NCBI GenBank assembly: GCA_938048925.1
Contig: CALITV010000210.1
Location: forward strand, 1-16,840
Length of the DNA: 16,840 nt
Direction of reading: 5' to 3'
From: an uncultured bacterium
GTDB taxonomy: Bacteria; UBP6; UBA1177; JAKLFG01
Shown here: positions 2,768-16,840 of the stretch, piece after piece
Layout of the letters: each line of letters opens with the position of its first letter
Numbering within the stretch: position 1 is the first letter of the stretch
Translations under genes and position numbers: made by a program
The notes under the pieces: model-generated
Database searches by the model: none
Seen by the model: only the letters and a program-made list of their open reading frames with translations
What the model was told of the DNA's origin: nothing

Positions 2768-3484
2768 TCATTTTTCTGGGCTAGCTTCGATAAAAGGAGG
2801 AATAGAAACCTGATCTCCATAATCGTTCACGATTTCGGGGGTCCCTCCCGTTTCTCCGGGAGTTTCGGCCGGACCACCGGGTGTATCGGTGCCGGCCCCG
2901 TCAGCAAGGTCTTCGGTCCCCAAGTTATTCGGATCGCGCTCCGTCGCCCAATCGGAGGTGAAATCCTGTCCCATCGCGTCTCCGATAGAGTCTTCCTCGC
3001 CATAGGTACCCGTCATATCCTTTTTTTGCTCCTTCTCCACGGTGGAGCGATTGTCCACCCGCGTCAACTGACGAGGACACGCTTGCGCGTCAATGAAGGC
3101 CTTCTCAGCGGCATCCGCAAGACCGCGTGTCAGCATCACCTGCGTCTGAGCCGCATCTTTTTTCTCGGCACGAATGAGATCGCTCATACGGTCTTTTGCG
3201 CTCTGAATGCTCGCCGCGATGCCCCGTATGGTTGCTAGGATGTCACCGAGACACACCTTCCATTTGATGTCCTTCTCTTCCACTGCCGCCGCCTGCATTT
3301 TCTTGACCGCCATCTCTATTGCACCGATCCGGGCCGCTTTTGCCTCCACCTCGGCGACCATCTGGTCTGCGGTCATGGTAACTTTCTTCTCTCTCAGTGG
3401 TTCGACGCCGGTGGGATCGGGCGCACCCTGCAAAAGAAGCGACCCTGCGCAAAGAAGAAAGAAGAACACCGTTCTCTTTTTCAT
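2768..3484 (-). CDS. Exported two-cysteine protein of unknown function
   Basis: A 238-residue protein that I do not recognise. It has a clear signal peptide (MKKRT, then a hydrophobic stretch to about residue 20). Residues 38-140 are Ala/Lys/Glu-rich and probably helical, with two cysteines (78 and 136) flanking the region and able to form a disulfide in the periplasm. Residues about 145-225 are acidic and rich in Gly, Pro and Thr, likely disordered; the C-terminus is SIPPFIEASPEK. It starts at an ATG with ACGGAG six bases upstream and begins 11 bases after the stop of the FHA-like/TonB gene, so it probably belongs to the motor operon as an accessory or regulatory periplasmic protein. It also lies 23 bases before the polysaccharide-export genes, so association with that unit is possible. 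Confidence 0.75.
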   Translation of the reverse strand: MKKRTVFFFLLCAGSLLLQGAPDPTGVEPLREKKVTMTADQMVAEVEAKAARIGAIEMAVKKMQAAAVEEKDIKWKVCLGDILATIRGIAASIQSAKDRMSDLIRAEKKDAAQTQVMLTRGLADAAEKAFIDAQACPRQLTRVDNRSTVEKEQKKDMTGTYGEEDSIGDAMGQDFTSDWATERDPNNLGTEDLADGAGTDTPGGPAETPGETGGTPEIVNDYGDQVSIPPFIEASPEK

Positions 3485-3495
3485 CGCTTGCTCCG

Positions 3496-4863
3496 TTAAT
3501 TGGCCGGCGAGAACACGAACGGAAAGGTCACCGAAGCGGGCGACTCAGGCTTTGGAAACCGCCAGCGGCTCACCACGCCCTTGATGCACGCGGCGACATC
3601 GGCATCTTTCATGGTATCTTCCGTTATCTCGACCATCTCGGCACGACCATCTTGGTTGATCATCCAAGTCACCGCAACCTTACCCTTCAATTGAGGGTTA
3701 GTTTTTAATGCCTTCTCATAGCATCTTTGAATAGCGGCGCTGTTCTGCTTCACTATCTTGACCACGCCTGCCTGATCGAGCGTACCCTCAACCTCCGGGG
3801 CACCTATCTTCGTGCTCGCAACGATTTCCTTCTCCTTCATTCCGCTGACCTTGACATTGCCGGAACTGGCGGCAACCTTGAGATCGTCAATCTTTGCCGA
3901 CTCGGTAGCGCCGGCGTCCCCTTTGCGACTCCGCTGTCCCGCATCGGTCGCGATGCCGATCTGTTTGACGCCGGACAAGGCGGAGTCTATATCTCGATCT
4001 TTTCCCCCCTCTCCCAAAACATCAGAGATGATTCCCGCCGAACCGTCACCACCCGCAGAGCCAATGAGTTTCAAAAGACCGACTCCTGCCACTTTCTTCT
4101 TCAACTCAGCGATACGCATCTCCTCTTCCCTCGCGCGGGTCGCCGCGTCGCGCGGTCCTTTCTTCTTCTTTGACACATCTTCGCCGCCCGATGTTTCTTC
4201 TTTTTTGGCGGCCGTCGCCGTTCCTTCCATCTCGGTTGTCTTTTTTTCTTCGATCGGCTTCTCCTCTATGGGAGGCATCTCAGGAGCAATGAGGCGTGCA
4301 AAGCGGTTGTCTATCTGGTCAAGCGCCTTCGGGGCGGGGTCGGGCAATCCATACATCCAATAAAGAAACGCAAAACCTATCAAAAATACAGAGGCATGTA
4401 TCGCCGCAAGCGGCCAATCTATCATCTGCGTCCATGATCCCCGTATCGAGCGGGGTAACCGGAGTTTCGGAGGCCGTGCCGGCGGCACGACGAACTGAAA
4501 TAGAACTATGGCGCTCCCCACCAACACTTTACCGCGCGCATCGGTTGAGAGCGGAAGAATATACGCATGTCCCCGTTTCTTGAGAAGACCTTTCTTGATA
4601 ACCTCTTCTATCTCTATCACTTTTCCCTTCAGGAATACCTTCCCGCTCATGTTTTCCATTACTACGAGCTCATATCTTCCCGATTTATAATAGAAAATCG
4701 GGAACTTGCTCGGGAGACTCGAAGAGGGAACAACGAAATGCGCCTTGGAGGTATCGCCGACATAGATCGTTTCCGGTTTGCGGAAGACCTGCTCGTCGAT
4801 GATTTTGCCGTTATAGATGACGCCGACGCGCAGCACCTTTTCAGTTGCAACGTTCTGAGTCAT
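3496..4863 (-). CDS. Inner-membrane FHA-like / AgmX-PglI TonB-type protein (GltG-like)
   Basis: A 455-residue protein with three parts. Residues about 10-125 form a cytoplasmic beta-rich domain like the FHA-type N-terminus of gliding protein GltG relatives, ending in RGKVLVGSAIVLFQFVVPP. One transmembrane helix spans about 151-172. A charged Lys/Glu/Pro periplasmic linker leads to a C-terminal domain at about 363-452 with the signature of the AgmX/PglI C-terminal (TonB-like) family: IQRCYEKALKTNPQLKGKV, DGRAEMVEITEDTM, ACIKGVVSRWRFPKPE and FPFVF, including the conserved cysteine pair Cys381/Cys426. By family analogy it would carry the energy of the ExbB/ExbD complex across the periplasm. The ATG start at 4863 has AGAAGAGG five bases upstream. 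The preceding 160-base gap holds a strong hairpin and a 12-codon ORF overlapping this start. GltG identity is inferred from domain order. Confidence 0.85.
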   Translation of the reverse strand: MTQNVATEKVLRVGVIYNGKIIDEQVFRKPETIYVGDTSKAHFVVPSSSLPSKFPIFYYKSGRYELVVMENMSGKVFLKGKVIEIEEVIKKGLLKKRGHAYILPLSTDARGKVLVGSAIVLFQFVVPPARPPKLRLPRSIRGSWTQMIDWPLAAIHASVFLIGFAFLYWMYGLPDPAPKALDQIDNRFARLIAPEMPPIEEKPIEEKKTTEMEGTATAAKKEETSGGEDVSKKKKGPRDAATRAREEEMRIAELKKKVAGVGLLKLIGSAGGDGSAGIISDVLGEGGKDRDIDSALSGVKQIGIATDAGQRSRKGDAGATESAKIDDLKVAASSGNVKVSGMKEKEIVASTKIGAPEVEGTLDQAGVVKIVKQNSAAIQRCYEKALKTNPQLKGKVAVTWMINQDGRAEMVEITEDTMKDADVAACIKGVVSRWRFPKPESPASVTFPFVFSPAN

Positions 4864-4898
4864 GACAACCTCTTCTTTTGCGTAAGGAAACCGCTCAT
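4860..4898 (-). CDS. Possible 12-codon leader ORF before the FHA-like/TonB gene
   Basis: A tiny ORF (MSGFLTQKKRLS) begins at an ATG preceded by GGAGG, three bases away, and ends in a TGA that overlaps the next gene's ATG in the arrangement ATGA. This geometry would permit translational coupling. The Shine-Dalgarno spacing is short and the ORF may be chance, because GGAGG-like strings are common in this purine-rich mRNA strand. No function is claimed. Confidence 0.2.
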   Translation of the reverse strand: MSGFLTQKKRLS

Positions 4899-4927
4899 CT
4901 TCCTCCGACGCGGGACAGGCGCGGCAC

Positions 4928-4963
4928 GGGGGAGAGGTCTCTATTCGAGAAACACTCTCCCCC
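4928..4963. other. Strong imperfect stem-loop in the ExbD-TonB intergenic gap
   Basis: Read on the minus (mRNA) strand, a nine-pair outer arm GGGGGAGAG/CTCTCCCCC encloses a one-base bulge and a six-pair inner arm GTTTCT/AGAGAC around a five-base loop CGAAT. On the minus strand it is preceded by an A-rich stretch and followed by GTGCCGCG, with no U run, so it is not a classic terminator of the operon. On the plus strand it is followed by TCTTTTT, which would suit a terminator of antisense transcripts, but no plus-strand gene is seen. It may be an mRNA processing or stability element that sets motor-to-transducer ratios. Confidence 0.65.
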
Positions 4964-5024
4964 TCTTTTTAAGATTTTTCGCGCGCACTGCTTCGTCCCT
5001 TGTTCCGCTCGCCGTGTCGGCTCA

Positions 5025-5609
5025 TCAACCCTCCGGACTGGAGATCGTAAGGAACTTAAACTTGTTGAATTCCGCCTGTCCAGCCGTGTACATCACCTCG
5101 GTAAGAAGACGAAACGGGGTGTCGCCGTCCATGATAATGGTCGCAACGCCCAGCGTCTTGCCCGCCGATGGGTTCACCGCAGCGATACGGCGCTGTTTCT
5201 CCATGCCGTCGGCCAGCATCTTATTGAGAGGGATGATGAAGTAACCGTCTTCGCCGCCGCGCTTCTGGGAACCGTCCACCTTGCCGTCCTTCACCGCCAA
5301 CGCCATCGCGTTATCCACAAGGATCGCCGACTTCGAGACGGTTATGGTAACCGTCTGTTCTGGTTGCAACATTGTCTTACTCTTCACGAGATCGAGATCG
5401 GCCGACGGAGTAACCGCCACCGGATCGGTCGAATAGCTTTTCAGCAGGAACACAAGAAGAATAGTGAGAATGTCCATGAGAGAGGTAATCGTCAATTTAG
5501 GCGGTCTCTCCAGCCGCCCTCCCTTCTTCCCCGCCTTTTTTTTGGCGAGCATCTCTTGCTCGTATGTTTCCGAGAGAATCTCGTAGGTCTGTTTTTGCTC
5601 TTCTGCCAT
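5025..5609 (-). CDS. ExbD/TolR-type biopolymer transport protein (Asp-containing copy)
   Basis: A 194-residue single-pass inner-membrane protein. A charged 38-residue cytoplasmic N-terminus (lysine-rich around 23-31) leads into a membrane helix at about 39-58 (LTITSLMDILTILLVFLL). Asp46 sits where ExbD Asp25 / TolR Asp23 carries protons. The usual N-x-T-P motif just before it is replaced by T-I-T-S. The periplasmic part (about 60-194) has the ExbD/TolR-like fold pattern ending with an amphipathic segment and FNKFKFLTISSPEG. With ExbB it would form a proton-driven motor. The ATG start has AGGGAGGA four bases upstream; the gap to the preceding ExbD gene is 11 bases. After its stop comes a 160-base gap with a strong hairpin. 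Confidence 0.9.
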   Translation of the reverse strand: MAEEQKQTYEILSETYEQEMLAKKKAGKKGGRLERPPKLTITSLMDILTILLVFLLKSYSTDPVAVTPSADLDLVKSKTMLQPEQTVTITVSKSAILVDNAMALAVKDGKVDGSQKRGGEDGYFIIPLNKMLADGMEKQRRIAAVNPSAGKTLGVATIIMDGDTPFRLLTEVMYTAGQAEFNKFKFLTISSPEG

Positions 5610-5620
5610 GCTATCCTCCC

Positions 5621-6169
5621 TTATGCCACGCCGGCGCTCAAGACGACATTCGGGAAGAGCGTCTTTTTCTTGTCGCCCTCCTTCTTCTCCCGAGAAGCGT
5701 CCATCACTTGGATGATATAGCGATATTTGATGTGCGACTCGGCCGTAATGATGATGTTCTCTTCCACCGGGTTCTCATCCTTGATGTCGGAGAGCATCTG
5801 GCTCAAGCGATCGTAGTCGTACACCTTGCCGGGGACCGGTTTGCCGTCAACGACCTCCTCGCCGTCCTTTTTGGGGATCGTCGGCCCCAGCGGATCATCC
5901 TTGTTCTCGATCACTTGATCCCGCGCATAGAGGTGGAACCCGCGGTCGGTGAGGGCAATGGTCAGTTTGAGCGGCTTTTCATCGGGAGCTTGGTCGGGTG
6001 GCGTCACCTCGCTCGACGGACCGATCTGAGGCGTCGCCACATTGATGACCGCCAGTTTCAGTGTCTCCATGGCCGTGATGAGAAGCGGGATGAGAATGAG
6101 AATGAGATTCATCGCCGGGATGAGATTGACATCGGTATCGGGCTCCAGTTCTTTTCTTTTTCTTGCCAT
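5621..6169 (-). CDS. ExbD/TolR-type protein with Asn in place of the catalytic Asp
   Basis: A 182-residue single-pass inner-membrane protein of the ExbD/TolR family. The membrane helix is at about 14-36, beginning VNLIPAMNLILILIPLL. It aligns without gaps to E. coli ExbD INVTPFIDVMLVLLIIF, so Asn21 (codon AAT) stands at the position of the essential proton-binding Asp25, while the conserved N and P before it are kept. The periplasmic domain (about 66-180) contains the usual strand/helix pattern, with an insertion (IPKKDGEEVVDGKPVPG) and a segment NIIITAESHIKYRYIIQVMDASRE typical of the family's C-terminal part. It starts at an ATG with AGGAGG seven bases upstream, 23 bases after the ExbB stop. 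It probably forms a mixed dimer with the other ExbD inside one ExbB ring; that is inference. Confidence 0.9.
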   Translation of the reverse strand: MARKRKELEPDTDVNLIPAMNLILILIPLLITAMETLKLAVINVATPQIGPSSEVTPPDQAPDEKPLKLTIALTDRGFHLYARDQVIENKDDPLGPTIPKKDGEEVVDGKPVPGKVYDYDRLSQMLSDIKDENPVEENIIITAESHIKYRYIIQVMDASREKKEGDKKKTLFPNVVLSAGVA

Positions 6170-6192
6170 AGGAAAACCTCCTATTTAATGGG

Positions 6193-6840
6193 TTAGCCCT
6201 CGGTCACCGTCCCCTTCTCGCGCGAAACCAACAGGTTGACCAATTTAACCGAATAGAGATCGATGTCGTTGAAGATTTTGCCTTCGAGCGACTTGATGAG
6301 CATATGAATGAACATCCCGGGGATCGCGACGCCGAGACCGAAACCGGTCGTGTTCATCGCGATGGAGATGCCGCTGGCGAGAAGCGCCGATTTCTGCTCG
6401 GGCGCCGCGTGTGCAACGGCATCGAACGCTTGGATCAGCCCTTGAATGGTGCCCAGCAGTCCAAGCATTGTCGCCATGTTGAAGACGACCGCGACCGTGT
6501 CGGTGAGTTTCTTGACCTTGGGGGTGTACTCAAGAACCGTCTCATCAATGGCGTTCTGAATCTCGAGTTCACCGCGGTTCGCGCGGCTGAGGCCCGCTTT
6601 GAGCACATTGGCGAGCGCCGCATCGCCGGCGGCCGAGCAGAGTTTGATCGCCTTGTCAACATTGTTGGCCATGACGAGTTTCTGGATCTGCTTCATCAGG
6701 TTGGCGCCGTTGGTGTTGAACTTAAGGAGAAGGAAGAGAAACTTGTAGATGGCGACGCCGATGATGTAGAGGCCGCACATCGCGATGAAGTGCATGAACA
6801 TACCGCCCTCGCGGTAAAACTGAGCAAACGATTGAATCAT
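6193..6840 (-). CDS. ExbB/TolQ/AglR-type motor channel protein
   Basis: A 215-residue inner-membrane protein with three transmembrane helices at about 14-39, 115-140 and 155-185. The family signatures are present: MLGLLGTIQGLIQAF in helix 2 and TTGFGLGVAIPGMFIHML in helix 3. Thr131 and Thr165 match the pore threonines of ExbB (Thr148, Thr181 in E. coli). The conserved glutamate of helix 3 (Glu176 in E. coli) aligns with Ile160, so the pore is atypical. The length is near that of short TolQ/ExbB proteins. The ATG start has GGAGG seven bases upstream. Two ExbD genes follow directly, and the order small exported protein-ExbB-ExbD-ExbD-TonB-like protein supports a dedicated motor operon. Confidence 0.93.
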   Translation of the reverse strand: MIQSFAQFYREGGMFMHFIAMCGLYIIGVAIYKFLFLLLKFNTNGANLMKQIQKLVMANNVDKAIKLCSAAGDAALANVLKAGLSRANRGELEIQNAIDETVLEYTPKVKKLTDTVAVVFNMATMLGLLGTIQGLIQAFDAVAHAAPEQKSALLASGISIAMNTTGFGLGVAIPGMFIHMLIKSLEGKIFNDIDLYSVKLVNLLVSREKGTVTEG

Positions 6841-6873
6841 GACGAAACCTCCGTCAAAACAAGGTGAATATAC

Positions 6874-7134
6874 CTAGAAAGCGTCTTCACTGAAGACCGC
6901 TTCCCTAACCTTCGGGACAAAGTTCACTTGCAAATCGAGTGTCCGGTAAACAAACTTGGCCCGCGACAAGAAATACATCGCTTCCGGCTTCTGTATCTTT
7001 CCTTTTATCTCTATCTCTTGGAAAACGAAACTCTTGGGGCGCCCCGGCTGGGGCCCTGCCATGAGCACGACAGCCGTCAATAAAACTACCACTGCGGTCA
7101 TAGCCCCTCTTACCGGTATCAAGGACTTCCTCAC
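6874..7134 (-). CDS. Small exported protein upstream of ExbB
   Basis: A protein of 86 residues with a signal peptide (positive residues in the first ten, hydrophobic core about 12-27). The mature part of about 55 residues carries a compact motif, FQEIEIKGKIQKPEAMYFL (37-55), then SRAKFVYRTLDL and an acidic end. The motif looks conserved rather than random, and similar short proteins occur beside motors of this kind in related clusters as I recall them, but I cannot name a function. The start is uncertain: GTG at 7134 gives the best signal peptide but has only a weak ribosome site; a TTG four codons in has AGGA five bases upstream; an ATG at residue 12 would lose the positive n-region. It lies 33 bases before exbB and just after a candidate promoter. 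Confidence 0.7.
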   Translation of the reverse strand: MRKSLIPVRGAMTAVVVLLTAVVLMAGPQPGRPKSFVFQEIEIKGKIQKPEAMYFLSRAKFVYRTLDLQVNFVPKVREAVFSEDAF

Positions 7135-7163
7135 AGTTTACACCATTGTACGAATGACCGTAT

Positions 7164-7192
7164 TTCATACCTTTTTCTCGGGAAGAAATCAA
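7164..7192 (-). promoter_or_regulatory. Candidate sigma-70-like promoter for the motor genes
   Basis: On the minus strand TTGATT and TATGAA are separated by exactly 17 bases, each matching four of six consensus positions. The -10 box ends 29 bases before the GTG of the 86-residue gene. It lies in the 72-base gap after the TPR lipoprotein gene, one of the few places in the window with room for a promoter. The match is modest, so this is a candidate only. Confidence 0.3.
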
Positions 7193-7206
7193 ATTTTTTG
7201 TCACTT

Positions 7207-8838
7207 TTATGGTTCCGTATTCTTTGGCGTTTTCTCTTCATCTGGCGGAGGTGGTACCTCAGGGGAGAGCGGCGACGCGCTGCCTGTTTTGAGCGCCTCG
7301 ATGCGTTTTTGGACAAAGAGCCGCACATCATGCTCTTCGCCAAGGTCGGCGTGTTTCGCGAGGAACTCGGCATACGCATCTATTGTATCCTTTTTCTTCG
7401 CTTCCTCCAAATCCTTCATCAACTGTTGATACTGACGCTCCTCTTCCTCTTCCTTCTTGCGTTTCGCCTCCATCTTCTGTCTCTGTTTTATCATCAGTTC
7501 TATTTTTTTCTTCTCGGTTTGTGCCTCTTTCAAGTAATCGGCTATCCGCTTCTGCTCCTCCTTGTCGCGCTTGTCAACCATCGCAAAATACTTGGTCAAA
7601 TAGGTCGTCGCGGTGTCGAGACGCACCGGTTGTCCGTCGCCCTCGACATCGTTGTCGAGGTAGAGGACGGCAAGGTTATAGATGATATCTTTCATCATTT
7701 CTTTGGGCGTTGCCGGGTCCTTTTCCAAAGAAACCAGAATATCTCGGGCCTGCTTGTATTCCTTCAGTCCCTTCAAGGCAACCGCCAGATTAAACTTTGC
7801 CTCGAGAAAATCGGGAGATATCTTCAAAGCAAATTCGAGTTCTTGTCGCGCCGTCTCGAAGTCTTCTATCTCCATCGCAAGAACCGCCAACATATTAGAG
7901 ACTTCCGGCAACTCCGGGTTGAACTTCTTTGCTTTCCGGAAGTGCTCGGTGGCTTTCTGCTTATTTCCTTGCTTGTATTCGAGGAAACCGTATATCCGCT
8001 GGAGACGGAAATTATCGGGGTTGATCTGCTCGGCAGTCGAAAAAATCATCTGTGCAAGTTCGAGCATGCCTTGATAAAAATAGGCAGTGCCGAGAGACAC
8101 CATGGCATCCACATTCTGTTCGTCTTCCTTCAGCACCGCCTTGGCGTGTTTGATGCACTCGTCATACTTCTTCGCTTTAAGATAGAGCCACGCAAGAAAG
8201 TTGTTCCGTACGACCACATCGGTGATCGTGTCCGCAAGGCGACGATAGTCGTCGGTTCGCAGGTTCTTCTTGTGCTCATCCAAGAGCACCATGTTGTATA
8301 AGGCCTGTTCCTGTATCTGCCGCACCGTCACCGCCTTCTCATACCACCGGCGCGCCTCATCGAGTTTACCCTGTCGCTCAAGACAAAGCGCTATATTGTA
8401 GGCGATGGACCCATTTTCCTTGTCCTGCACAAACGCTTTTTCCCATTCCTTCAAAGCTGCGCCGCACCCTTGGGAGAAATAACGTTCGACCCCTTTTCCG
8501 AACTCTTCCTTTGCCGGCCCGACATACCGCGTCCCGTCGAAGAAACGCTCCCGTTCCGACTCCTTTTCCCGTTGAGCATTTTCATCACGTTGCTTCCTCT
8601 CTTCGTCGGAAAGGGGCTGCTTCTTCTCGGGAGAGGCCGCCGGCAAAGCCGCTTTACTTTCTTCGGAGACTGCCTTTTCCTTGTCGCCCTTATCCGATTC
8701 CGTCTTTTGTTCGGTGAGCGACTCTTTTATTCGTGCCGCCCCCTTCTCCGGTGCCGTCGAGGCACATCCCCCTATGAACGCAAAGATAACGACGAGATAC
8801 ACGAACGGTAGTGCAAAGCGGGCCCGTATCGCCGCCAT
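7207..8838 (-). CDS. TPR repeat outer-membrane lipoprotein (GltE/AglT-like)
   Basis: A 543-residue lipoprotein. The signal peptide ends in a lipobox FIGGC (lipidated Cys25) followed by Ala-Ser, a sequence compatible with outer-membrane sorting. A charged, Lys/Glu/Ser-rich linker spans about 30-100. TPR repeats cover about 110-420, for example AYNIALCLERQGKLDEARRW and AVALKGLKEYKQARDIL. A highly charged coiled coil follows at about 425-485, then a short helical segment and a Pro-rich tail. Domain order resembles the gliding TPR lipoprotein AglT/GltE of M. xanthus, but no orthology test was possible. The ATG start is preceded by AAGGGGGA and lies one base after the stop of the long TPR gene, indicating co-translation. 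It probably anchors or scaffolds the machine at the outer membrane. Confidence 0.85.
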   Translation of the reverse strand: MAAIRARFALPFVYLVVIFAFIGGCASTAPEKGAARIKESLTEQKTESDKGDKEKAVSEESKAALPAASPEKKQPLSDEERKQRDENAQREKESERERFFDGTRYVGPAKEEFGKGVERYFSQGCGAALKEWEKAFVQDKENGSIAYNIALCLERQGKLDEARRWYEKAVTVRQIQEQALYNMVLLDEHKKNLRTDDYRRLADTITDVVVRNNFLAWLYLKAKKYDECIKHAKAVLKEDEQNVDAMVSLGTAYFYQGMLELAQMIFSTAEQINPDNFRLQRIYGFLEYKQGNKQKATEHFRKAKKFNPELPEVSNMLAVLAMEIEDFETARQELEFALKISPDFLEAKFNLAVALKGLKEYKQARDILVSLEKDPATPKEMMKDIIYNLAVLYLDNDVEGDGQPVRLDTATTYLTKYFAMVDKRDKEEQKRIADYLKEAQTEKKKIELMIKQRQKMEAKRKKEEEEERQYQQLMKDLEEAKKKDTIDAYAEFLAKHADLGEEHDVRLFVQKRIEALKTGSASPLSPEVPPPPDEEKTPKNTEP

Positions 8839-8839
8839 T

Positions 8840-11800: not shown

Positions 11801-12151
11801 CCAATACTTCTTGATAAAATTCTCGAAAAGAACGATCGCCTCGTCGCGGGAAGCCGACTCGCTTTCCAGTTCCTTGCGAAGAGAGGGCTGGTATTTCATC
11901 TCAATGAGTCGTTTCTTTTCTTCCACCTTACGCTTCAGAAGAGACTGCACCTCCCGTTGATAGTCGGCGACCAGCGATTCATAGCGGATAATCTGTCGTT
12001 CGACATAATCCTTCTCAAAACTTGTCTCGTCAACCACCATGGGAACACGGTTGTTTTTTCGCTCGGTCTCCTCTTTCGTAAGATTTTTTTCTTCTTTCGC
12101 CGAAAGTGGCAGGGCAAACAACAGGAGACAGAGGAGTTTGAGGATCGTCAT
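8840..12151 (-). CDS. Long exported TPR-repeat scaffold protein (AgmK/GltI-like)
   Basis: A 1103-residue secreted protein: a short signal peptide (MTILKLLCLLLFALPLSA), a charged coiled region to about residue 100, and then many degenerate TPR-like helical hairpins over most of the length, for example YMLGYCLDASKQKEEAVKVW, NEFPESEAAVYAARDIIGAY and ALLLERLKRYREAATYYALY. The last 150 residues (from about EEIEKDPEAADMYQQMLNEQ onward, including RWTTLIIEKLSKLRPEEF) look like a separate conserved end, with a Lys/Glu tail. The ORF can be read from 12250, but the 33 extra residues precede the signal peptide and lie inside the upstream gene, so I use the ATG at 12151, which has GGAG eight bases upstream. 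The ATGA overlap with the upstream TPR gene shows tight coupling. It is likely a periplasmic scaffold; the AgmK comparison rests on architecture and context. Confidence 0.85.
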   Translation of the reverse strand: MTILKLLCLLLFALPLSAKEEKNLTKEETERKNNRVPMVVDETSFEKDYVERQIIRYESLVADYQREVQSLLKRKVEEKKRLIEMKYQPSLRKELESESASRDEAIVLFENFIKKYWGNAEFVPSAMYRLAELYYERSMIEHEARMDEYDRQMALYEKGQIAQEPEMPIVDLEPSIALYREIVTNYRDFRYLGGAYYMLGYCLDASKQKEEAVKVWEEMMEQKISSEYAAEVYMRIGEYYFSEKNDLRKALDAFMKSAQYKDYKDYDKVVYKIAWTYYRMNDFDRAIDTFASLIFYADEMKRRGLPGGQDMRKESVQYIAISFADEEWGSVDKAIAYFNKIDGKNFELEVFDKLGKYYYENANYAQAEKAYRFVLSRHPHHESAPKIHEKLIQMYNKQGMLDKMQEEIERFTVLYEEGAEWAIKNRANATALRNAAQQAKDFLIGSAGYHQTLAQQAKEKGDFERAKNEYAVAAQLYGKYLEKFPYTSESYDISYNFADCLYFSGQIARAVLIYERIRDDKNQDRLRNDAGLATYHCYNALWEEAPERQIKSEEKRGKPFAKIEEKLIEASDIYLEIAKEAADRSGVAYNSARIFYDHGRFDEAEKRYLRIINEFPESEAAVYAARDIIGAYTEKKDWVNVAKWSKLLTDRLLQAKSPKGKEITDEFKTYRGAALFKYAEQLQEEKKHREAADEYLRIVEENPYHQDADKALFNAAYNFEKALLFDSAMTIHERIYKEYPYSPIAPQSLFLVAYNAERSYNFEKALDAYLLLYKKYPTNEKRLFAIYNAALLLERLKRYREAATYYALYAREQADKPDGKEAAYFVGLMYQKAEDWKGMIARLEQFIDTYRNDPAVQNLVLRAYYQIAKTYEEKLGDWKRAKETYVKILEYYNAKKVESEEANAYAAEAEFKLIEDDFADYEKLKIGGQNLKKLEESLKAKKALSQELGKRYGEILKYKSEWSYAALYRQGNILQLFAAALIDTPIPKEIEKDPEAADMYQQMLNEQIAPLEQQAVDIYVSTLEKAKEARIFNRWTTLIIEKLSKLRPEEFRAGKAPRYGINTALESGYPVILTLDRSEKKVYKRAGIKKEEKPAGEESPKGE

Positions 12152-14463
12152 TCCAAGTTCTCCAAGTTCAGGTAGAGTTCCTGAATCTCCTGCGCCATCC
12201 GCGTACGAAGACGGTTGAGGTTCTGAGTCGCCTCTTCCTTGCGCTCCCACGCGACATCAATAATGCCGAGATCGGCTTGCAAAAGAAGATCGTCAAATGT
12301 TTTGTTCACCCGCGAAAGGTTGGAAACTACCGTCAACGAGACGGTCTCGTTCACCTCCCGCTTCAAAGAGAGGAGTTGACTTTTATACTCTTCGATCTTT
12401 ATTTTTTCGGCTTCGAAGGCCTCCTTGATATTTTGCACAAGGCCGCCCACGACCTCGTTGAGCCTGTCGGAAAACCGAGCGACAATCCCGGCAAGATTGT
12501 CCAACCGTGCGAAAAGATCCTCCACCCGCTTCTTTTCCGTTGCGGGAAGACTTGTCGAGCGAGCAAGAATCTGTTCCTGCTCCCGCAGTACCCGCTCATA
12601 GGCATCACGAGCGATCATCATGCGGGAAAAGATGTCCCCGCCCAAAAGAATGCGGTTTTTTTCGTCCTCGGTTTCCTGCTTGAATTGCAGAATGCGCTCC
12701 CGCAGGGAAACGACCTGTTGCTTTTCTGTCTCTATTTTCTTGACGATCCTGTTATCGGGAGATGTCGTCGCGCGCATATAGTACATATGCAACGATTCGA
12801 TCTGATCCCCCACCGTTTTCGTACGCACCAACGCTCGGTGGATTTCTTCCTCAAAGGCAAGTAACGAAGCGGTATAATGGGAAACGGTTTCCTCAAAAGA
12901 GGCCCCTGCCTGAGGCGTCAAATCGCTTACCTTTTTCTCGAGAGGCTTCCTCTCCTTTTCAAGATCATCCCATCTCGCGCGATCCTGCGGCGCAAGTCCC
13001 TTCAACACCGCGTCGGCGTATACCTTCAAAAGGGCGGCTCGAAGAGCAGCCACTTTGCTCTTCAGAATGATCGTCTTTTCGGTCCCCTCTTTAAGGGGCG
13101 GGAATATGGCGGCCACATTTTTGTTCCCGACGATGATTGCCAGTTTGCTTTCCAGTTTAGCGACCTGTTCCAGATCCACCTCTATTTGTTTGAGCTCATC
13201 CTGAAGTCTCATCGCTTGAGAGAATTTCTTGTTGTCCTTAAGCAAGGATCTTACGAGGGGCGCATACAACGAGAAACGCGACTCGACGGAGCCATCGGCG
13301 TCTTCCCAAAGGCTTGTTTTCCCTTTAAGAGAATTCAGTTGGTCACGAACATCCCCATATTCTTTGACAATACGATTGAACAGAAGCATTGCCTCGCCAT
13401 AACGGCGCAACTTGATGAGGATATTCCCCTCAAGTATCTCGGCCTGCGGTGCCACAAAGGATCCGGGCGCGATATACCGCACCAATCGCAACGCATCGAG
13501 CGCCTTTTCCCATTGTTCGCGCTTGATATAGATCCAACACAGTTCCAAATAAGCCTCGGCGAACAGATGAGAACGGTGATCGATCTTCAGATAATAATCG
13601 GTGGCGGTTTCCAAATCGCCTTTTCCAAAAAGAAGACGCCCCATCGCAAGTATCGCGAGATCGCGAATCTGTTCATACTTGAGATACGGGCCTGCCGGCG
13701 TCTCGCTCACTGTAGCAAAAAAGGGAATTGCTCGTTCGATGTCGTTCCCCTGCAAGGCGATCACCCCGCGGAAATAGAGGCTTTGAAGATAGTAAGCGCT
13801 CTCTTTCTGGACCGCAGAGAGCACCGCGTCCGCGTCCTTGTACTGGGCATCGAAAAAAAGCGATTTACCTAAGAAGTAAAGAAGGTCTTGATCCCGCGAG
13901 ATATCGTAGCCGATGTTGAGAAAATCGTTGTAGTATGTCTTTGCTTTCGCATACTCTCCCAGATGATACGCCGCGGCGATGAGCCGTTTAAGGGCGTCCA
14001 CCTGAAAACGCGAATAGGGTTTCTCGGCCAGCAATGTTTCGTAATACCGGGACGCCGAGAGGTAGTTGTTGCTGAGGAACAATGTCTCGGCGAGTTTGAA
14101 AAGAGCCTCTTCCCAGATGACATCCTTCTCTTTCCGCCCGCTCGCTATAGAGTAATAGAGACTTCCCGCCGAAATGTAGTCTTTTCGTTCAAAATAGAAA
14201 TCGGCCTTCTCAAGTTTCTTCGCGGGAGATTCGCTGTATTCGCGACTGACGGTGAAAGGAGCTAGGTAGCGTCCCTCGGCACCTGCTACTTCCTCCTCGA
14301 GTGTTTTTAAGTCGAACTCTATCGAAGAAAGATTCTTCTCAAGCGCCCCTGCCCCCCCTGCGTCGGAAACCTTTTGTTGTGCCGCGAGTTCTTTGCCCTC
14401 CGCGACCAGCAATAAAGCCAAACACAAGAAACGGCAAGAAAACATCCTCGTTCGGAGAGACAT
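12148..14463 (-). CDS. Exported TPR and coiled-coil protein (Glt-cluster type)
   Basis: A 771-residue secreted protein. The signal peptide (MSLRTRMFSC and a Leu-rich core) ends near residue 28. After a coiled segment (about 40-65), TPR-like helical repeats span about 80-370, for example EALFKLAETLFLSNNYLSAS and GVIALQGNDIERAIPFF. The C-terminal half (about 395-771) is mainly charged long helices predicted to form coiled coils, ending RTRMAQEIQELYLNLENLE. It would make an elongated periplasmic element. An in-frame GTG at 14475 would add four residues but has no ribosome site; the ATG at 14463 has a closely placed AGG and gives a good signal peptide, so I prefer it with moderate certainty. Its TGA overlaps the ATG of the next TPR gene. 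It starts 15 bases after the 236-residue gene. Confidence 0.83.
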   Translation of the reverse strand: MSLRTRMFSCRFLCLALLLVAEGKELAAQQKVSDAGGAGALEKNLSSIEFDLKTLEEEVAGAEGRYLAPFTVSREYSESPAKKLEKADFYFERKDYISAGSLYYSIASGRKEKDVIWEEALFKLAETLFLSNNYLSASRYYETLLAEKPYSRFQVDALKRLIAAAYHLGEYAKAKTYYNDFLNIGYDISRDQDLLYFLGKSLFFDAQYKDADAVLSAVQKESAYYLQSLYFRGVIALQGNDIERAIPFFATVSETPAGPYLKYEQIRDLAILAMGRLLFGKGDLETATDYYLKIDHRSHLFAEAYLELCWIYIKREQWEKALDALRLVRYIAPGSFVAPQAEILEGNILIKLRRYGEAMLLFNRIVKEYGDVRDQLNSLKGKTSLWEDADGSVESRFSLYAPLVRSLLKDNKKFSQAMRLQDELKQIEVDLEQVAKLESKLAIIVGNKNVAAIFPPLKEGTEKTIILKSKVAALRAALLKVYADAVLKGLAPQDRARWDDLEKERKPLEKKVSDLTPQAGASFEETVSHYTASLLAFEEEIHRALVRTKTVGDQIESLHMYYMRATTSPDNRIVKKIETEKQQVVSLRERILQFKQETEDEKNRILLGGDIFSRMMIARDAYERVLREQEQILARSTSLPATEKKRVEDLFARLDNLAGIVARFSDRLNEVVGGLVQNIKEAFEAEKIKIEEYKSQLLSLKREVNETVSLTVVSNLSRVNKTFDDLLLQADLGIIDVAWERKEEATQNLNRLRTRMAQEIQELYLNLENLE

Positions 14464-14478
14464 TACCTGCACCACATT

Positions 14479-15189
14479 TTACTGAGCCGATCGTTCCTGC
14501 CGGCGGTCGTTCCGTTCGGCCGTAGTAAATTCCTCGTAGGATTTTTTGGCAATATCGAATGATATATAGAGGCGGTTGTCGAGTTTCACCAATGAACCTC
14601 TATCTATCGTCGTCGCCGTCACCTCGACCAACTGTCCCTCTTCAACATTGAAAGAATAACCTGCTTTCAGTTTGAACAAATAACCTTTCATATAAGAAAA
14701 GAGCCCGTACCCTTTTCCTCTATACACAAGGTAAATAGACAGGTGGTGCGGCCCCGGCACCACCGACCCGTCGAAGATAGGCACTTCGTCCTTTATTTCG
14801 GGGCCGCCTTCGACCCATTTGAATACCGGTGCTTCGTCGAGGTAGTACAACACCGAGACCAACTCGAAGGCCGACCCCACATCGTTGCGGTGCACAATGG
14901 AACAGCGGGCGCCTGCCAGCGCGCCGCTCAACACCGTCTCTTGCAAGACGGCAAGTCGTTGCTTTGCTCTGAAGACCTTGTCTTTCAGCGAGTTGATCTT
15001 TTCCTCAAGGTTGCGCAGGCGAAGATCAATCTCCGGAGCAGAAGCACCCCCCCCCGGAGGCGTCGGACGAGTCTCGCCGACCTCCGCCGGTGCTGCTCCG
15101 TCAGAGGATAGTGCACCGGTATCCTCCGCCAGAACCCCCCAAACGGCGAGAAGCAAGAGGGCGCAAAAAACCATAACAACCGTTTTCAT
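14479..15189 (-). CDS. Exported coiled-coil plus beta-domain protein of Glt-type clusters
   Basis: A 236-residue exported protein with a signal peptide (about 1-21), a Pro/Gly/Ala-rich linker (about 25-53), a short coiled coil (about 54-88, DLRLRNLEEKINSLKDKVF) and a globular, strand-rich domain (about 92-215) with the segments SIVHRNDVGSAFELVSVLYY, GSVVPGPHHLSIYLVYRGKG and YGLFSYMKGYLFKL. I recall similar proteins, sometimes mislabelled dihydrolipoamide acetyltransferase, beside TPR genes of gliding clusters in myxobacteria; this is memory of the family, not a search result, and no acetyltransferase or lipoyl domain is visible. The C-terminal 20 residues are strongly charged. The ATG start has GGGGA seven bases upstream. 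A candidate promoter lies just upstream, after murI. Confidence 0.78.
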   Translation of the reverse strand: MKTVVMVFCALLLLAVWGVLAEDTGALSSDGAAPAEVGETRPTPPGGGASAPEIDLRLRNLEEKINSLKDKVFRAKQRLAVLQETVLSGALAGARCSIVHRNDVGSAFELVSVLYYLDEAPVFKWVEGGPEIKDEVPIFDGSVVPGPHHLSIYLVYRGKGYGLFSYMKGYLFKLKAGYSFNVEEGQLVEVTATTIDRGSLVKLDNRLYISFDIAKKSYEEFTTAERNDRRQERSAQ

Positions 15190-15215
15190 ATCGTATCCCC
15201 AAAAAGCAACAAAGC

Positions 15216-15244
15216 AGCATACACAAGCAAGTCGGTAAAATCAA
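15216..15244 (-). promoter_or_regulatory. Candidate sigma-70-like promoter after murI
   Basis: On the minus strand TTGATT and TATGCT are separated by 17 bases, each matching four of six consensus positions. The -10 box ends 26 bases before the ATG of the 236-residue gene. The -35 box lies just after the murI stop. The same TTGATT-17-TATG arrangement occurs before the 86-residue gene, which slightly raises confidence in both. Confidence 0.3.
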
Positions 15245-15248
15245 TTTT

Positions 15249-16046
15249 TCAGATATGTTCTACGGTGGAAAGAGGGCGGCCTAGGAAACGCCCTCCTATA
15301 CGTCGAAAGCTCTCGGCTGCATCGGTGACAAAGAAACGCTCCTCGCCTTTTCCGGAAACATCGTTGGAAAGCCCGGAGCGGGTCAGAAGATCCCGAAGAG
15401 CAACCGCGGTAGGAACCGCAGAATCAATGATGAACACCTTGTTTCGAAAATAGGCCTCTAGAGCAGGACGTAAAAGCGGGTAGTGCGTACACCCGAGGAC
15501 GAGGGTATCTATAGCGACTTCTCGGAAATCCGCAAGGTAGTAATCTATCACTTGGTCAACCAGCGGATGCACGACTATCCCTTCCTCAACTAATGGGACA
15601 AAAAGCGGACATGCCTTGGCCCTTATTGTTTTCCCCAGAGATTCCAAGGCAGATTGATAAACCCCACTGCCGATGGTCGTCGTCGTTCCGATCACCCCTA
15701 TATTCTCCGTATCCGATCGGGAAGAAAGATATTTCACCACCGGTTCGACGACACCGATAATCGGGATATCCGGGAAAACCGCCCTGACATGGTCGAGTGC
15801 CGTCGCCGATGCTGTATTGCAGGCGACCACTACGACCTTGGCTCCTTGCCCGACGAGGAACCGGATGTTGCCTTCGGCATACCGACGGATGACCTCCGGT
15901 GACTTGGTGCCGTAAGGAACCCTCGCCGTGTCACCGAGATAATACAAATCCTCGGAAGGCAGAATTTCTTTTATTTCCTTGAAAACGGTGAGCCCGCCGA
16001 TACCCGAATCAAAAATCCCGATCGGTTTTTTCTTTGCAGAAACCAT
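15249..16046 (-). CDS. murI: Glutamate racemase
   Basis: Interconverts L- and D-glutamate in the cytoplasm, supplying D-glutamate for peptidoglycan stem peptides. The 265-residue protein has the family's full length and all main motifs: GIFDSGIGGLTV near the N-terminus with the catalytic-site Asp-Ser-Gly, LGDTARVPYG, VVVACNTASA with the first catalytic Cys, and LVLGCTHYPLL with the second catalytic Cys and the conserved His. No key residue is missing. The ATG at 16046 is preceded by AGAAGGA eight bases away; a GTG one codon earlier is equally possible. It sits 79 bases after the small beta-barrel gene and 59 bases before the 236-residue gene, an unusual position for a housekeeping enzyme inside a surface-machine cluster. 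Confidence 0.97.
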   Translation of the reverse strand: MVSAKKKPIGIFDSGIGGLTVFKEIKEILPSEDLYYLGDTARVPYGTKSPEVIRRYAEGNIRFLVGQGAKVVVVACNTASATALDHVRAVFPDIPIIGVVEPVVKYLSSRSDTENIGVIGTTTTIGSGVYQSALESLGKTIRAKACPLFVPLVEEGIVVHPLVDQVIDYYLADFREVAIDTLVLGCTHYPLLRPALEAYFRNKVFIIDSAVPTAVALRDLLTRSGLSNDVSGKGEERFFVTDAAESFRRIGGRFLGRPLSTVEHI

Positions 16047-16125
16047 CACTATTTTCCTTCTCGTTACATTCTGCTTTTTTCTAACCGAACAAGAAAAACG
16101 AACACAAAGAAGATACGGTCTTTCT

Positions 16126-16737
16126 TCAGAACCCGAAAGAGTATTTAAGATACGGCATGATAGTTACGCCGAACCCGTCGAAATTCACAATGTAATCGAA
16201 TTTCGCCGAAAGTCCCATGGAAAAGTGGCGTGCATAGGTGTAATATTCGGCATCCGCCCCCATGCCGATCATGATGAAAAGATCGTTTTCTTTGTTGCCG
16301 GAATCTTTTGCCTTTGCGGCAAGCATGAAGTCGGCGCCGAGATTAAGACCTATCTCCCAGCGGTTGTTGATACAGTAGGTAGGAGAAAGGGATATTCCGA
16401 CCAGCACCGGCGCATAGTCTTCGAGCCACGGGGAGACCGACTTAGAGGAATCGGTATTAAGTTGCAAGAGACCGAAGTCCGCATTAATCCCCAATGAAAA
16501 GACGCTGACAATCTGAATATCGTATCCGAACCCAAGCTTAACAATAGAACCAACCGTATCGGAGTACTTGGCCGCGTCACCTATCATAAAAAAGGGACCA
16601 CCGGAAATGGCGGAATTGAATCCCTTCAAGACAGGCACGAGATCGTTGCCGGAGGCGTCTCCCACCGTCTGCTCTTCGGCGGAAAGAAGCGACACGGCGA
16701 ACAGTATCAGTGCCGCTGTCATTATTCTCCCTTTCAT
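16126..16737 (-). CDS. Small outer-membrane beta-barrel protein (Glt/CglE-like context)
   Basis: A 203-residue exported protein with a signal peptide (MKGRIMTAALILFAVSLLSA). The rest is short alternating strands separated by turns, for example GSIVKLGFGYDIQIVSVF, NRWEIGLNLGADFMLAA and a final strand ITIMPYLKYSFGF-like ending in Phe (read directly: VTIMPYLKYSFGF), the hallmark of a small eight-stranded-type barrel. Myxobacterial gliding clusters include small barrels of this kind (GltA, GltB, CglE), which is why I link it to the machine; sequence alone would also fit a generic OmpW/OmpA-like porin. The ATG start has a strong AAGGAGGA eight bases upstream. It begins 18 bases after the end of an AgmX-like gene. 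Confidence 0.75.
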   Translation of the reverse strand: MKGRIMTAALILFAVSLLSAEEQTVGDASGNDLVPVLKGFNSAISGGPFFMIGDAAKYSDTVGSIVKLGFGYDIQIVSVFSLGINADFGLLQLNTDSSKSVSPWLEDYAPVLVGISLSPTYCINNRWEIGLNLGADFMLAAKAKDSGNKENDLFIMIGMGADAEYYTYARHFSMGLSAKFDYIVNFDGFGVTIMPYLKYSFGF

Positions 16738-16755
16738 AGCCGCACTCCTCCTTTC

Positions 16756-16840
16756 TTACCCTTCCGAATGTTTGAACACGAAGGGATAGTTAACGATGAC
16801 GATGCCGCCGCCCTTCGGTTGCGGAAACCTTATCTTTTTT
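16756..16840 (-). CDS. C-terminal end of a second AgmX/TonB-type protein, partial
   Basis: Reading the minus strand from the window edge gives 27 residues and a TAA stop. They read KKIRFPQPKGGGIVIVNYPF followed by VFKHSEG. This is the end of the AgmX/PglI C-terminal domain: an aromatic/FP-x-P segment, a triple-Gly turn and a final YPFVF strand, matching WRFPKPE and FPFVF at the end of the complete protein at 3496-4863. The start lies beyond base 16840, so the full domain set cannot be seen. It suggests a second TonB-like transducer (AgmX/GltJ-like) at the head of this cluster, 18 bases before the small beta-barrel gene. Confidence 0.7.
   Translation of the reverse strand, partial: KKIRFPQPKGGGIVIVNYPFVFKHSEG

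What the first reader, a model, noticed from the sequence alone, without database searches (positions are those of the whole stretch)
2768..16840. Agl/Glt-like trans-envelope machine encoded as one co-directional cluster
One strand carries, in order, an AgmX-like end, a small outer-membrane barrel, a periplasmic coiled-coil/beta protein, two long TPR scaffolds, a TPR lipoprotein, a small exported protein, ExbB, two ExbDs and an FHA-like/TonB protein. M. xanthus has related parts spread over the glt and agl loci; here motor and scaffold genes are contiguous. No polar-switch regulator (MglA/B) or adhesin is visible in the window. It may drive gliding or power another surface process.
Basis: partly seen in the sequence, partly recalled or inferred. 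Interest (0 to 1): 0.72.

Follow-up and report, generated by a model that had tools for sequence, protein, structure and literature searches.

The report
Gliding-type motor beside sugar-polymer exporter
An uncultured bacterium carries, in one gene row, the parts of a proton-driven machine related to the one that moves gliding myxobacteria, but here tied to genes that export a surface sugar polymer, which suggests that this branch of the family handles polymer rather than moving the cell.

Summary
The host is a MAG of candidate phylum UBP6. Clustering of gltC/D/E/G with aglRQS homologues was published in 2011 as a 'core complex' of unknown function. New here: (1) the scaffold groups with the M. 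xanthus orphan cluster G4, and the motor with its orphan motor M2, not with gliding (G1, AglRQS) or sporulation (Nfs). (2) The order t3-GltC-D-E-F-[motor]-GltG-t11-Wzp-Wza recurs in UBP6 (Wza 17 of 17) and Myxococcota (39 of 45), putting the 'orphan' wzaB-wzpB beside G4. (3) The AgmX-like tail and small barrel belong to a second, Nfs/Glt-type module; a relative lost the window-type module except the motor. (4) One ExbD has Asn where the proton-carrying Asp belongs (104 of 110 homologues). Best reading: a pmf-powered trans-envelope machine serving surface-polysaccharide export or transport. Function is inferred, not shown.

The parts
16756..16839 (-). 3' end (27 residues and stop) of a GltG-type protein with AgmX/PglI tail; belongs to upstream module A (Nfs/Glt type)
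   Evidence: Translation; 96% identical to the end of the 471-aa module A GltG of G003 and G001; the G003 protein scores 259 bits to gliding_GltG and 106.6 to myxo_SS_tail
16126..16737 (-). t1: small outer-membrane barrel, CglE (=GltH) family; last gene of module A
   Evidence: NCBIfam NF033755 CglE 80.8 bits, cut-off 70; same place in relatives. CglE = GltH is recalled.
15249..16049 (-). murI, glutamate racemase, between the two modules; not a machine part
   Evidence: TIGR00067 222 bits, cut-off 146.65; present at this place in 7 of 8 inspected UBP6 loci
14479..15189 (-). t3: exported coiled-coil plus beta-domain protein; first gene of module B; in Myxococcus it lies directly after mglA
   Evidence: 35 of 41 Myxococcota-type and 14 of 14 UBP6-type loci with enough upstream DNA; alignment; L138. 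Fold is a reading of the sequence, not predicted.
12148..14475 (-). GltC-like TPR protein, exported
   Evidence: NCBIfam GltC 47.1 bits, below cut-off 450; tree
8840..12151 (-). GltD-like long TPR protein; likely start at the ATG at 12151 (signal peptide)
   Evidence: tree places it with M. xanthus G4 GltD
7207..8838 (-). GltE-like TPR lipoprotein
   Evidence: NCBIfam GltE 68.4 bits, below cut-off 225; lipobox in translation
6874..7134 (-). GltF-like small exported protein (86 aa)
   Evidence: matched by position and sequence in relatives including myxobacteria; no NCBIfam match
6193..6840 (-). ExbB/AglR-family motor subunit
   Evidence: PF01618 74.4 bits; best M. xanthus match 39% identical, in the second motor locus L152; one such gene in each of 25 of 28 UBP6 genomes at E<=1e-30
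5621..6169 (-). ExbD1 (AglQ position); Asn21 where both M. xanthus motors have the transmembrane Asp
   Evidence: PF02472; Asn in 25 of 27 readable loci and 104 of 110 homologues
5025..5609 (-). ExbD2 (AglS position); Asp46 kept
   Evidence: PF02472; Asp in 29 of 29 loci and in both M. xanthus motors
3496..4863 (-). GltG-like protein: N-terminal cytoplasmic region without detectable FHA, one TM, linker, TonB-like/AgmX tail
   Evidence: NCBIfam GltG 164.7 bits (cut-off 650), myxo_SS_tail 98.2 (cut-off 40); FHA 0 of 20; tree
2768..3484 (-). t11: exported helical protein with two conserved Cys and acidic tail; counterpart between GltG and Wzp in Myxococcota
   Evidence: hhalign 91.7%, E 8e-7 against six Myxococcota proteins; unrelated-pair control 0.4%
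1329..2744 (-). Wzp-type outer-membrane barrel, homologous to the barrel next to Wza in myxobacteria (WzpB place)
   Evidence: hhalign 99.9%, E 1.8e-32 over 362 columns; 17 of 17 UBP6-type loci
650..1321 (-). Wza-type polysaccharide export lipoprotein, short form ending with its SLBB domain
   Evidence: PF02563 81 bits, SLBB; 223 aa from the likely start, as in relatives
1..642 (-). Wzz/Wzc co-polymerase, cut by the contig end; in a relative full length with P-loop domain and Tyr-rich tail
   Evidence: PF02706 39 bits; L048:14053-16200 with Wzz, GNVR and AAA_31

Best explanation
The window holds module B of a two-module super-cluster. Module B is a proton-driven trans-envelope machine of the Agl/Glt superfamily, of the branch that in M. 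xanthus is split into the uncharacterised scaffold cluster G4, the uncharacterised second motor M2, and wzpB-wzaB. Proposed mechanism: ExbB with one ExbD1 and one ExbD2 forms the inner-membrane motor; GltG is the TonB-like link that carries the stroke through the periplasm along the TPR scaffolds GltC, GltD, GltE and GltF to the outer membrane; there it acts on the Wzp barrel/Wza translocon, fed by the Wzc co-polymerase, so that pmf work gates, pulls or moves a secreted surface polysaccharide. In UBP6 the same motor also serves the Nfs/Glt-type module A upstream. Shown: gene content, homology, placement in trees, conserved order, one such motor per genome, the Asp/Asn asymmetry. Inferred: the polysaccharide role, the force path, the ExbD heterodimer, the sharing of the motor.
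For: Trees of GltD (97), GltC (100) and GltG (94, SH-aLRT) split module B and the Myxococcota GltG loci (with M. xanthus G4 in the first two) from Nfs and UBP6 module A; M. xanthus G1 is in the GltD tree only, G1-type rows of Anaeromyxobacter in all three. A tree of the joined motor proteins (33 rows, bootstrap/SH-aLRT) puts the M. xanthus motor with exact AglRQS lengths outside (100/100) and the other M. xanthus motor among cluster-borne module B motors (98/97). Wzp and Wza follow GltG in 17 of 17 UBP6-type loci and in 41 and 39 of 45 Myxococcota-type loci with at least 5 kb downstream; G026 of a distant family keeps t3-GltC-D-E-motor-GltG-Wza, with a weak Wzp hit. In M. xanthus AM003 three contigs give MglA-t3-GltC-D-E, GltF-GltG-cNMP-t11, Wzp-Wza, fitting published tags MXAN_1922 (G4 gltD), 1916 (WzpB), 1915 (WzaB). 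The one relative's Wzc examined has a fused P-loop domain and Tyr tail, as WzcB of BPS has a fused kinase but WzcX/WzcS do not (PMC7310880). G024 lost t3-GltC-D-E-F and GltG-t11-Wzp-Wza-Wzc on both sides of a retained motor. MXAN_3003 (M2) did not bind GltG or NfsG in two-hybrid (PMC3858216, passage), which leaves G4 GltG as a candidate partner. Precedent: Agl-Nfs moves the Wza(ExoA)-exported spore coat (same passages).
Against: No experiment links G4 or M2 to polysaccharide. G009 keeps Wzp, Wza, Wzc, t3 and GltC but lost GltD-G of module B, so export genes persist without most of the scaffold. 6 of 45 Myxococcota-type loci lack Wza nearby. Most Myxococcota loci have no motor in the cluster (ExbB in 8 of 52, both ExbD in 7 of 52). 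No Wzx, Wzy or glycosyltransferase gene was recognised in the window; Wzy_C hits lie on other contigs in 4 of 5 genomes and none was found in this 65% complete MAG. Wzx was not searched genome-wide. Shared operon position is not proof of shared function.
Confidence: 0.63

Rival explanations
1. It is a gliding machine: the motor drives module A, and module B with Wza/Wzp supplies or transports the slime that couples the machine to the surface.
For: Module A has a GltA/B-like barrel (weak), C, D, E, F, G and CglE genes, close to the set that PMC3169522 proposes for potential gliders; MglA is present in the MAG; the motor is kept with module A when module B is lost.
Against: UBP6 module A is not closer to G1 than to Nfs in the GltD tree (open fork). 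The motor is M2-type, not AglRQS. 11 of 23 in-phylum genomes with the window-type GltD have no MglA match. M. xanthus G4 and M2 mutations did not affect motility (PMC3169522). GltJ, GltI and CglB were not established here.
Confidence: 0.18
2. The Glt genes and the Wza/Wzp/Wzc genes are independent systems that merely share a transcription unit for coordinated envelope growth (murI, RlpA/SPOR and SpoIID are also nearby).
For: murI inside the row; DPBB/SPOR and SpoIID genes after Wzc in a relative; G009 keeps export genes without GltD-G.
Against: The order is kept across phyla, while murI was found only in UBP6 loci and not in all of them; Wzp and Wza follow GltG in 41 and 39 of 45 Myxococcota-type loci; G024 lost both parts on either side of a retained motor.
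Confidence: 0.14
3. It is an Nfs-like machine that builds a spore or cyst coat in UBP6.
For: Nfs acts on an exported polysaccharide with a shared motor (PMC3858216); module A is on the Nfs/Glt side of the trees.
Against: Module B is on the G4 side, not the Nfs side; deletion of MXAN_3004 of the M2 motor left sporulation normal (PMC3858216). Sporulation genes were not searched for.
Confidence: 0.05

Closest known systems
Myxococcus xanthus G4 cluster (MXAN_1922 region) with wzpB/wzaB (MXAN_1916/1915)
   Same: Same gene families in the same order: t3, GltC, GltD, GltE, GltF, GltG, t11, Wzp, Wza; same side of the GltD and GltC trees.
   Different: M. xanthus has mglA before t3 and a cNMP-binding gene after GltG; Myxococcus loci with full flanks show no motor and no Wzz/Wzc hit. 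UBP6 has all three motor genes and Wzc in the row.
M. xanthus M2 motor (MXAN_3003-3005)
   Same: Nearest M. xanthus motor: ExbD1 E 2e-17 and ExbD2 E 2e-24 against 1e-3 and 5e-8 for the AglRQS-sized set; tree.
   Different: Encoded apart from G4 in M. xanthus; both its ExbD proteins have Asp, while the window's ExbD1 has Asn. L152 is M2 by elimination.
'Core complex' of Luciano et al. 2011 (Group B: gltC, D, E, G, aglR, Q, S in one region)
   Same: All seven gene types contiguous.
   Different: The word polysaccharide does not occur in that paper's text, and it covers other phyla; the wza/wzp/wzc linkage, second module and Asn-type ExbD are added here.
Agl-Glt gliding machinery (G1, G2, M1)
   Same: Motor family, GltC-G scaffold families, CglE-type barrel (module A).
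   Different: G1 GltD and the AglRQS-sized motor fall outside the window's group; below NCBIfam cut-offs for GltC, GltE, GltG and GltJ; no gene of GltI size in the window; GltK not assessed.
Agl-Nfs sporulation machinery
   Same: One motor for two scaffolds; work on a Wza-exported glycan.
   Different: Nfs lies on the side of upstream module A in the trees, not of module B.
Class 3 OPX / Wzp / Wzc export (WzaB-WzpB-WzcB, BPS)
   Same: Short Wza, adjacent Wzp barrel homologue, Wzc with fused P-loop domain in a relative.
   Different: No Wzx/Wzy/glycosyltransferases recognised in this row.

Membership tests
Agl-Glt core complex (Luciano 2011, Group B) | gltC, gltD, gltE, gltG and aglR, Q, S homologues in one genomic region | tested here: met
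   definition from PMC3169522 section 7
Agl-Glt gliding machinery of M. xanthus | orthology to G1 proteins | tested here: not met
   GltD tree groups the window with G4, not G1; GltG 164.7/650, GltE 68.4/225, GltC 47.1/450 bits
Agl-Glt gliding machinery of M. xanthus | motor orthologous to AglRQS | tested here: not met
   Joined motor tree, AglRQS-sized set outside at 100/100; assignment of that set rests on the lengths 245/162/194
Agl-Glt gliding machinery of M. xanthus | CglE (GltH) barrel | tested here: met
   80.8 bits over cut-off 70, but in module A
Agl-Glt gliding machinery of M. xanthus | MglA control | tested here: inconclusive
   MglA in own genome; 12 of 23 in-phylum genomes with the window-type GltD have a match, 11 have none
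Agl-Glt gliding machinery of M. xanthus | CglB adhesin, AglZ, GltI, GltJ, GltK elsewhere in the genome | not tested
   One attempt hit another family, TraB
M. xanthus G4-type module | GltC and GltD on the G4 side | tested here: met
M. xanthus G4-type module | t3, t11, Wzp, Wza in the same order | tested here: met
Nfs machinery | GltC/D/G on the Nfs side | tested here: not met
   (true of module A, not of the window's module B)
Class 3 OPX / Wzp / Wzc export system | short OPX protein without C-terminal outer-membrane helix | tested here: inconclusive
   Wza ends with its SLBB domain; no structure could be predicted
Class 3 OPX / Wzp / Wzc export system | adjacent barrel of the WzpB family | tested here: met
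   hhalign 99.9% against the barrels next to Wza in myxobacteria; 18 strands not tested
Class 3 OPX / Wzp / Wzc export system | Wzx and Wzy in the locus | tested here: not met
   None recognised in the window; Wzy_C on other contigs in 4 of 5 genomes searched; M. xanthus wzaB is also apart from its pathway
ExbBD/TolQR-type proton motor | transmembrane Asp in ExbD | tested here: met
   ExbD2 Asp46 yes; ExbD1 has Asn21 instead

The most novel reading that the evidence does not exclude
The UBP6 row is one pmf-driven polysaccharide machine whose three parts lie scattered in M. xanthus as the orphan scaffold G4, the orphan motor M2 and the orphan wzaB-wzpB: M2 would pull through G4 GltG on the WzpB-WzaB exporter, so that BPS export is motor-driven. 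In UBP6 the motor is an asymmetric ExbB-ExbD(Asn)-ExbD(Asp) unit; gliding and spore-coat building would be sister uses of the same design.
Probability: 0.33. Interest if true: 0.86.

Novelty: new variant of a known kind. Interest (0 to 1): 0.65.

Why it matters
PMC3169522 states that the functions of G4, of M2 and of the core complex outside gliders are unknown; PMC7310880 and PMC7484181 treat wzaB (MXAN_1915) as an orphan. Conserved order across two phyla, with a motor of the M2 kind inside the row, joins these three open ends into one testable proposal in a tractable laboratory organism. The Asn-type ExbD1 bears on another stated unknown, whether AglQ and AglS work as homo- or heterodimers (PMC9389320, passages): a conserved partner without the Asp argues that at least this branch uses an asymmetric pair or a non-conducting second subunit. 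The natural loss in G024 suggests that the motor outlives one of its two scaffolds.

Tried and rejected
Rejected: a T9SS/PorW relation (20.1 bits against cut-off 250). Rejected: t11 as UBP6-specific; the first tblastn pass found it in 0 of 52 Myxococcota-type loci, but reading the gap between GltG and Wzp in 8 of them showed counterparts in 6, and profile comparison supported these. Rejected: the AgmX tail as GltJ; the full protein of G003 matches GltG far better (259 against 34.5 bits). Mended late: I first took the M. xanthus motor in L152 for AglRQS and that in L155 for M2; the lengths in L155 (245, 162 and, from the ATG, 194 aa) equal those of AglR, AglQ and AglS in PMC3169522, so the names were the wrong way round, also as row labels. 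Both sets have Asp, so its counts stand. The motor tree made after this moved my odds slightly: best explanation 0.60 to 0.63, novel case 0.30 to 0.33, gliding 0.20 to 0.18. No help: PDB sequence searches for GltG (TonB tails; other matches at E>=0.1), t3 (coiled coils at E>=0.12) and Wzp (one match at E 0.1); Rfam and tRNA scans (0 and 0); the accession tried for CglB, which proved to be TraB with sub-cut-off matches in 28 of 28 genomes. A first GltD tree of 85 rows did not finish; the reported one has 53 of those 85. Left out before the 85: 14 short frames under 880 aa (some are artefacts of where a hit began) and loci held twice. GltC and GltG trees used thinned sets of 35 and 39 rows; M. 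xanthus G1 is in neither, and its G4 GltG (L069) is not in the GltG tree. One outgroup row (G060) stands on the module A side for GltD and GltC but on the B side for GltG. Structure prediction for t3 and GltG could not be run.

Full report
Host and setting. The window is one whole contig (C210, 16,840 bp) of a 1.47 Mb MAG, 65% complete. Its closest named relatives in genome contigs are MAGs labelled 'bacterium', 'Spirochaetales', 'Sumerlaeota' and, by UBA accession, 'UBP6_UBA1177' and 'UBP6_UBA1209'; I take the host to be candidate phylum UBP6, from record titles only.

Anatomy. All genes of interest read on the minus strand. From high to low coordinates: the end of a GltG-type protein, a CglE-family barrel (t1), glutamate racemase, t3, GltC-like, GltD-like, GltE-like, GltF-like, ExbB, ExbD1, ExbD2, GltG-like, t11, Wzp-type barrel, Wza, Wzz/Wzc. 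Gaps from t3 to Wzz run from -4 to 161 bp.

Two modules, one motor. In the relatives G003, G001, G008, G022 and G019, a second set lies upstream of the window's genes: barrel (g12), GltC, GltD, GltE, GltF, GltG, t1 (the G001 contig begins inside this set). I call it module A and the window's set module B. Both GltD copies lie on one contig in 12 of the 17 same-order genomes (own genome included) with hits to both, about 10-11 kb apart (counted by me from its table). An ExbB of the window's kind occurs once in each of 25 of 28 in-phylum genomes at E<=1e-30, and in 18 of 18 genomes at least 90% complete and at most 5% contaminated.

Which branch: scaffold. I identified the M. xanthus paralogues in strain AM003: L139 is G1, because its GltE scores 746 bits against the GltE cut-off of 225; L140 is the Nfs-type cluster by content; L138 is G4, being MglA-t3-GltC-GltD-GltE. 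Trees (quick IQ-TREE, SH-aLRT, unrooted): GltD, 53 rows and 983 columns, central branch 97; GltC, 35 rows, 100; GltG, 39 rows, 94. In each, one side holds Nfs and UBP6 module A (and, for GltD, G1); the other holds the window, other UBP6 module B rows and the Myxococcota loci (with G4 for GltD and GltC). Several long branches carry warnings in these outputs, one outgroup row changes sides for GltG, and no AU test was run.

Which branch: motor. AM003 has two motor loci of this family: L155 with frames of 245, 162 and 194 aa, the lengths of AglR, AglQ and AglS, and L152, which by elimination is MXAN_3003-3005, 'the only additional complete set' (PMC3858216, passage). The window's ExbD1 and ExbD2 match L152 at E 2e-17 and 2e-24, and L155 at 1e-3 and 5e-8. 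In a tree of the three joined proteins (33 rows, 584 columns, careful IQ-TREE, unrooted) the AglRQS-sized sets of three myxobacteria stand apart (100/100), and the other sets lie among module B motors (98/97) next to two loci labelled Deltaproteobacteria that carry the motor in the cluster (99/98). The window's motor is thus M2-like.

Conserved linkage to polysaccharide export. Of 79 loci found with a GltG alignment (best 80 of 212 kept), 19 are UBP6-type and 60 Myxococcota-type (my split by order of identity and title; one of the 60 is titled Comamonas). With at least 5 kb downstream of GltG, Wzp and Wza follow in 17 of 17 UBP6-type loci and in 41 and 39 of 45 of the others. Myxobacteria are related, so these counts are not independent events; the agreement across phyla carries the weight. 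The Wzp-type barrels of UBP6 and Myxococcota are homologous by profile comparison (99.9%, E 1.8e-32), as are, less strongly, the t11 proteins (91.7%, E 8e-7; control pair 0.4%). In AM003 the pieces GltF-GltG-cNMP-t11 (L069) and Wzp-Wza (L165) end at contig breaks that fit one row with L138. Published tags agree: gltD of G4 is MXAN_1922 (PMC3169522, section read), WzpB and WzaB are MXAN_1916 and 1915 (PMC9603273, passages), leaving five numbers for t11, cNMP, GltG, GltF and GltE. That mglBA is MXAN_1925-1926 is recalled.

What the literature says. PMC3169522 (sections 6, 7, 11, 12, 13 read) describes the core complex and calls the functions of G4, G5 and M2 unknown. PMC7310880 (section 6 read, other passages) calls mxan_1915 orphan-like; PMC7484181 (passages) says it is not part of a cluster for polysaccharide synthesis. 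Words beginning with Glt or Agl do not occur in the main text of PMC9603273; the passages of PMC9601211 mention Glt only for gliding controls. Searches for MXAN_1917, 1921, 1923, 1924 and 1914, 1918, 1919, 1920 found no paper in the held library; a search joining WzaB, WzpB, MXAN_1915, mglA and gltD listed none that holds both gltD and the wza names. Supplements and subscription papers were not searched, so the link may be in print elsewhere.

Natural deletions. In G024 (84% complete, 6% contamination) the contig reads module A, t1, murI, ExbB, ExbD1, ExbD2, then an RlpA/SPOR-like gene: t3 to GltF and GltG to Wzc are gone on both sides of the motor. Its only Poly_export match is in a 426-aa frame on another contig. 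In G009 (97% complete) GltD, E, F and G of module B are gone while t3, GltC, motor, t11, Wzp, Wza and Wzc remain. Neither stretch has N in these gaps. I read this as the motor also serving module A, and as module B being a dispensable unit; G009 shows that the unit is not all-or-none and counts against a strict need of the scaffold for export. G002 and G004 gave no GltD hit, but G002 holds GltF, motor and GltG on a 4.4-kb contig, so its missing GltD may be a gap in the assembly.

Motor asymmetry. At the transmembrane site where both M. xanthus motors have Asp in both ExbD proteins, ExbD1 has Asn in 18 of 18 readable UBP6-type loci and in 7 of 9 others; the two with Asp (L064, L072) are the ones that group with M2. 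So M2 itself keeps Asp, and the asymmetry cannot be assumed for M. xanthus. Among 110 homologues of the window's ExbD1, 104 have Asn, 3 Asp, 2 Gly, 1 Ser; that search started from an Asn-bearing query, which favours Asn. ExbD2 has Asp in 29 of 29. A Glu at the outer end of the ExbD1 helix is kept in 18 of 18 readable UBP6-type loci; its meaning is unknown. PMC9389320 (passages) says AglQ and AglS are both predicted to carry the Asp and that homo- or heterodimer formation is not known.

MglA. The MAG has an MglA-type gene on C134. Of 23 in-phylum genomes with the window-type GltD (three of them, of a distant family, at 28% identity), 12 have an MglA match and 11 none; two more have MglA without a GltD hit. 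Some are incomplete, but the two features look separable.

Conclusion. The finding is a new variant of a known kind. The family and order claims are firm; the polysaccharide role is an inference from conserved order, motor kind, Wzc type and the Nfs precedent; the asymmetric motor is a sequence fact with an inferred mechanism.

Noticed in passing
window 15249-16049; L168, L170: A glutamate racemase gene lies between the two Glt modules in 7 of 8 inspected UBP6 loci; it is absent in G022.
   Followed up: partly
L048:16160-17984: Downstream of Wzc in G022 lie a DPBB/SPOR (RlpA-like) gene and a SpoIID gene, both peptidoglycan-related.
   Followed up: no
L138:8007-9417; L142/L143; L028: In M. xanthus AM003, Anaeromyxobacter and G055 (Citreicoccus) the gliding-polarity gene mglA lies directly before t3 of the G4-type cluster, so the polarity switch sits beside the polysaccharide-linked branch, not beside G1.
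   Followed up: partly
L061, L062, L069, L090 between GltG and t11: Some Myxococcota clusters hold a cyclic-nucleotide-binding protein after GltG; a possible regulator.
   Followed up: no
G000:C203 (L002, L003): Two long frames (471 and 460 aa) in this MAG carry MotA/ExbB domains side by side; they are distant from the window's ExbB.
   Followed up: no
ExbD1 residue 35 in window numbering: A Glu at the outer end of the ExbD1 transmembrane helix is kept in all 18 readable UBP6-type loci beside the Asn.
   Followed up: partly
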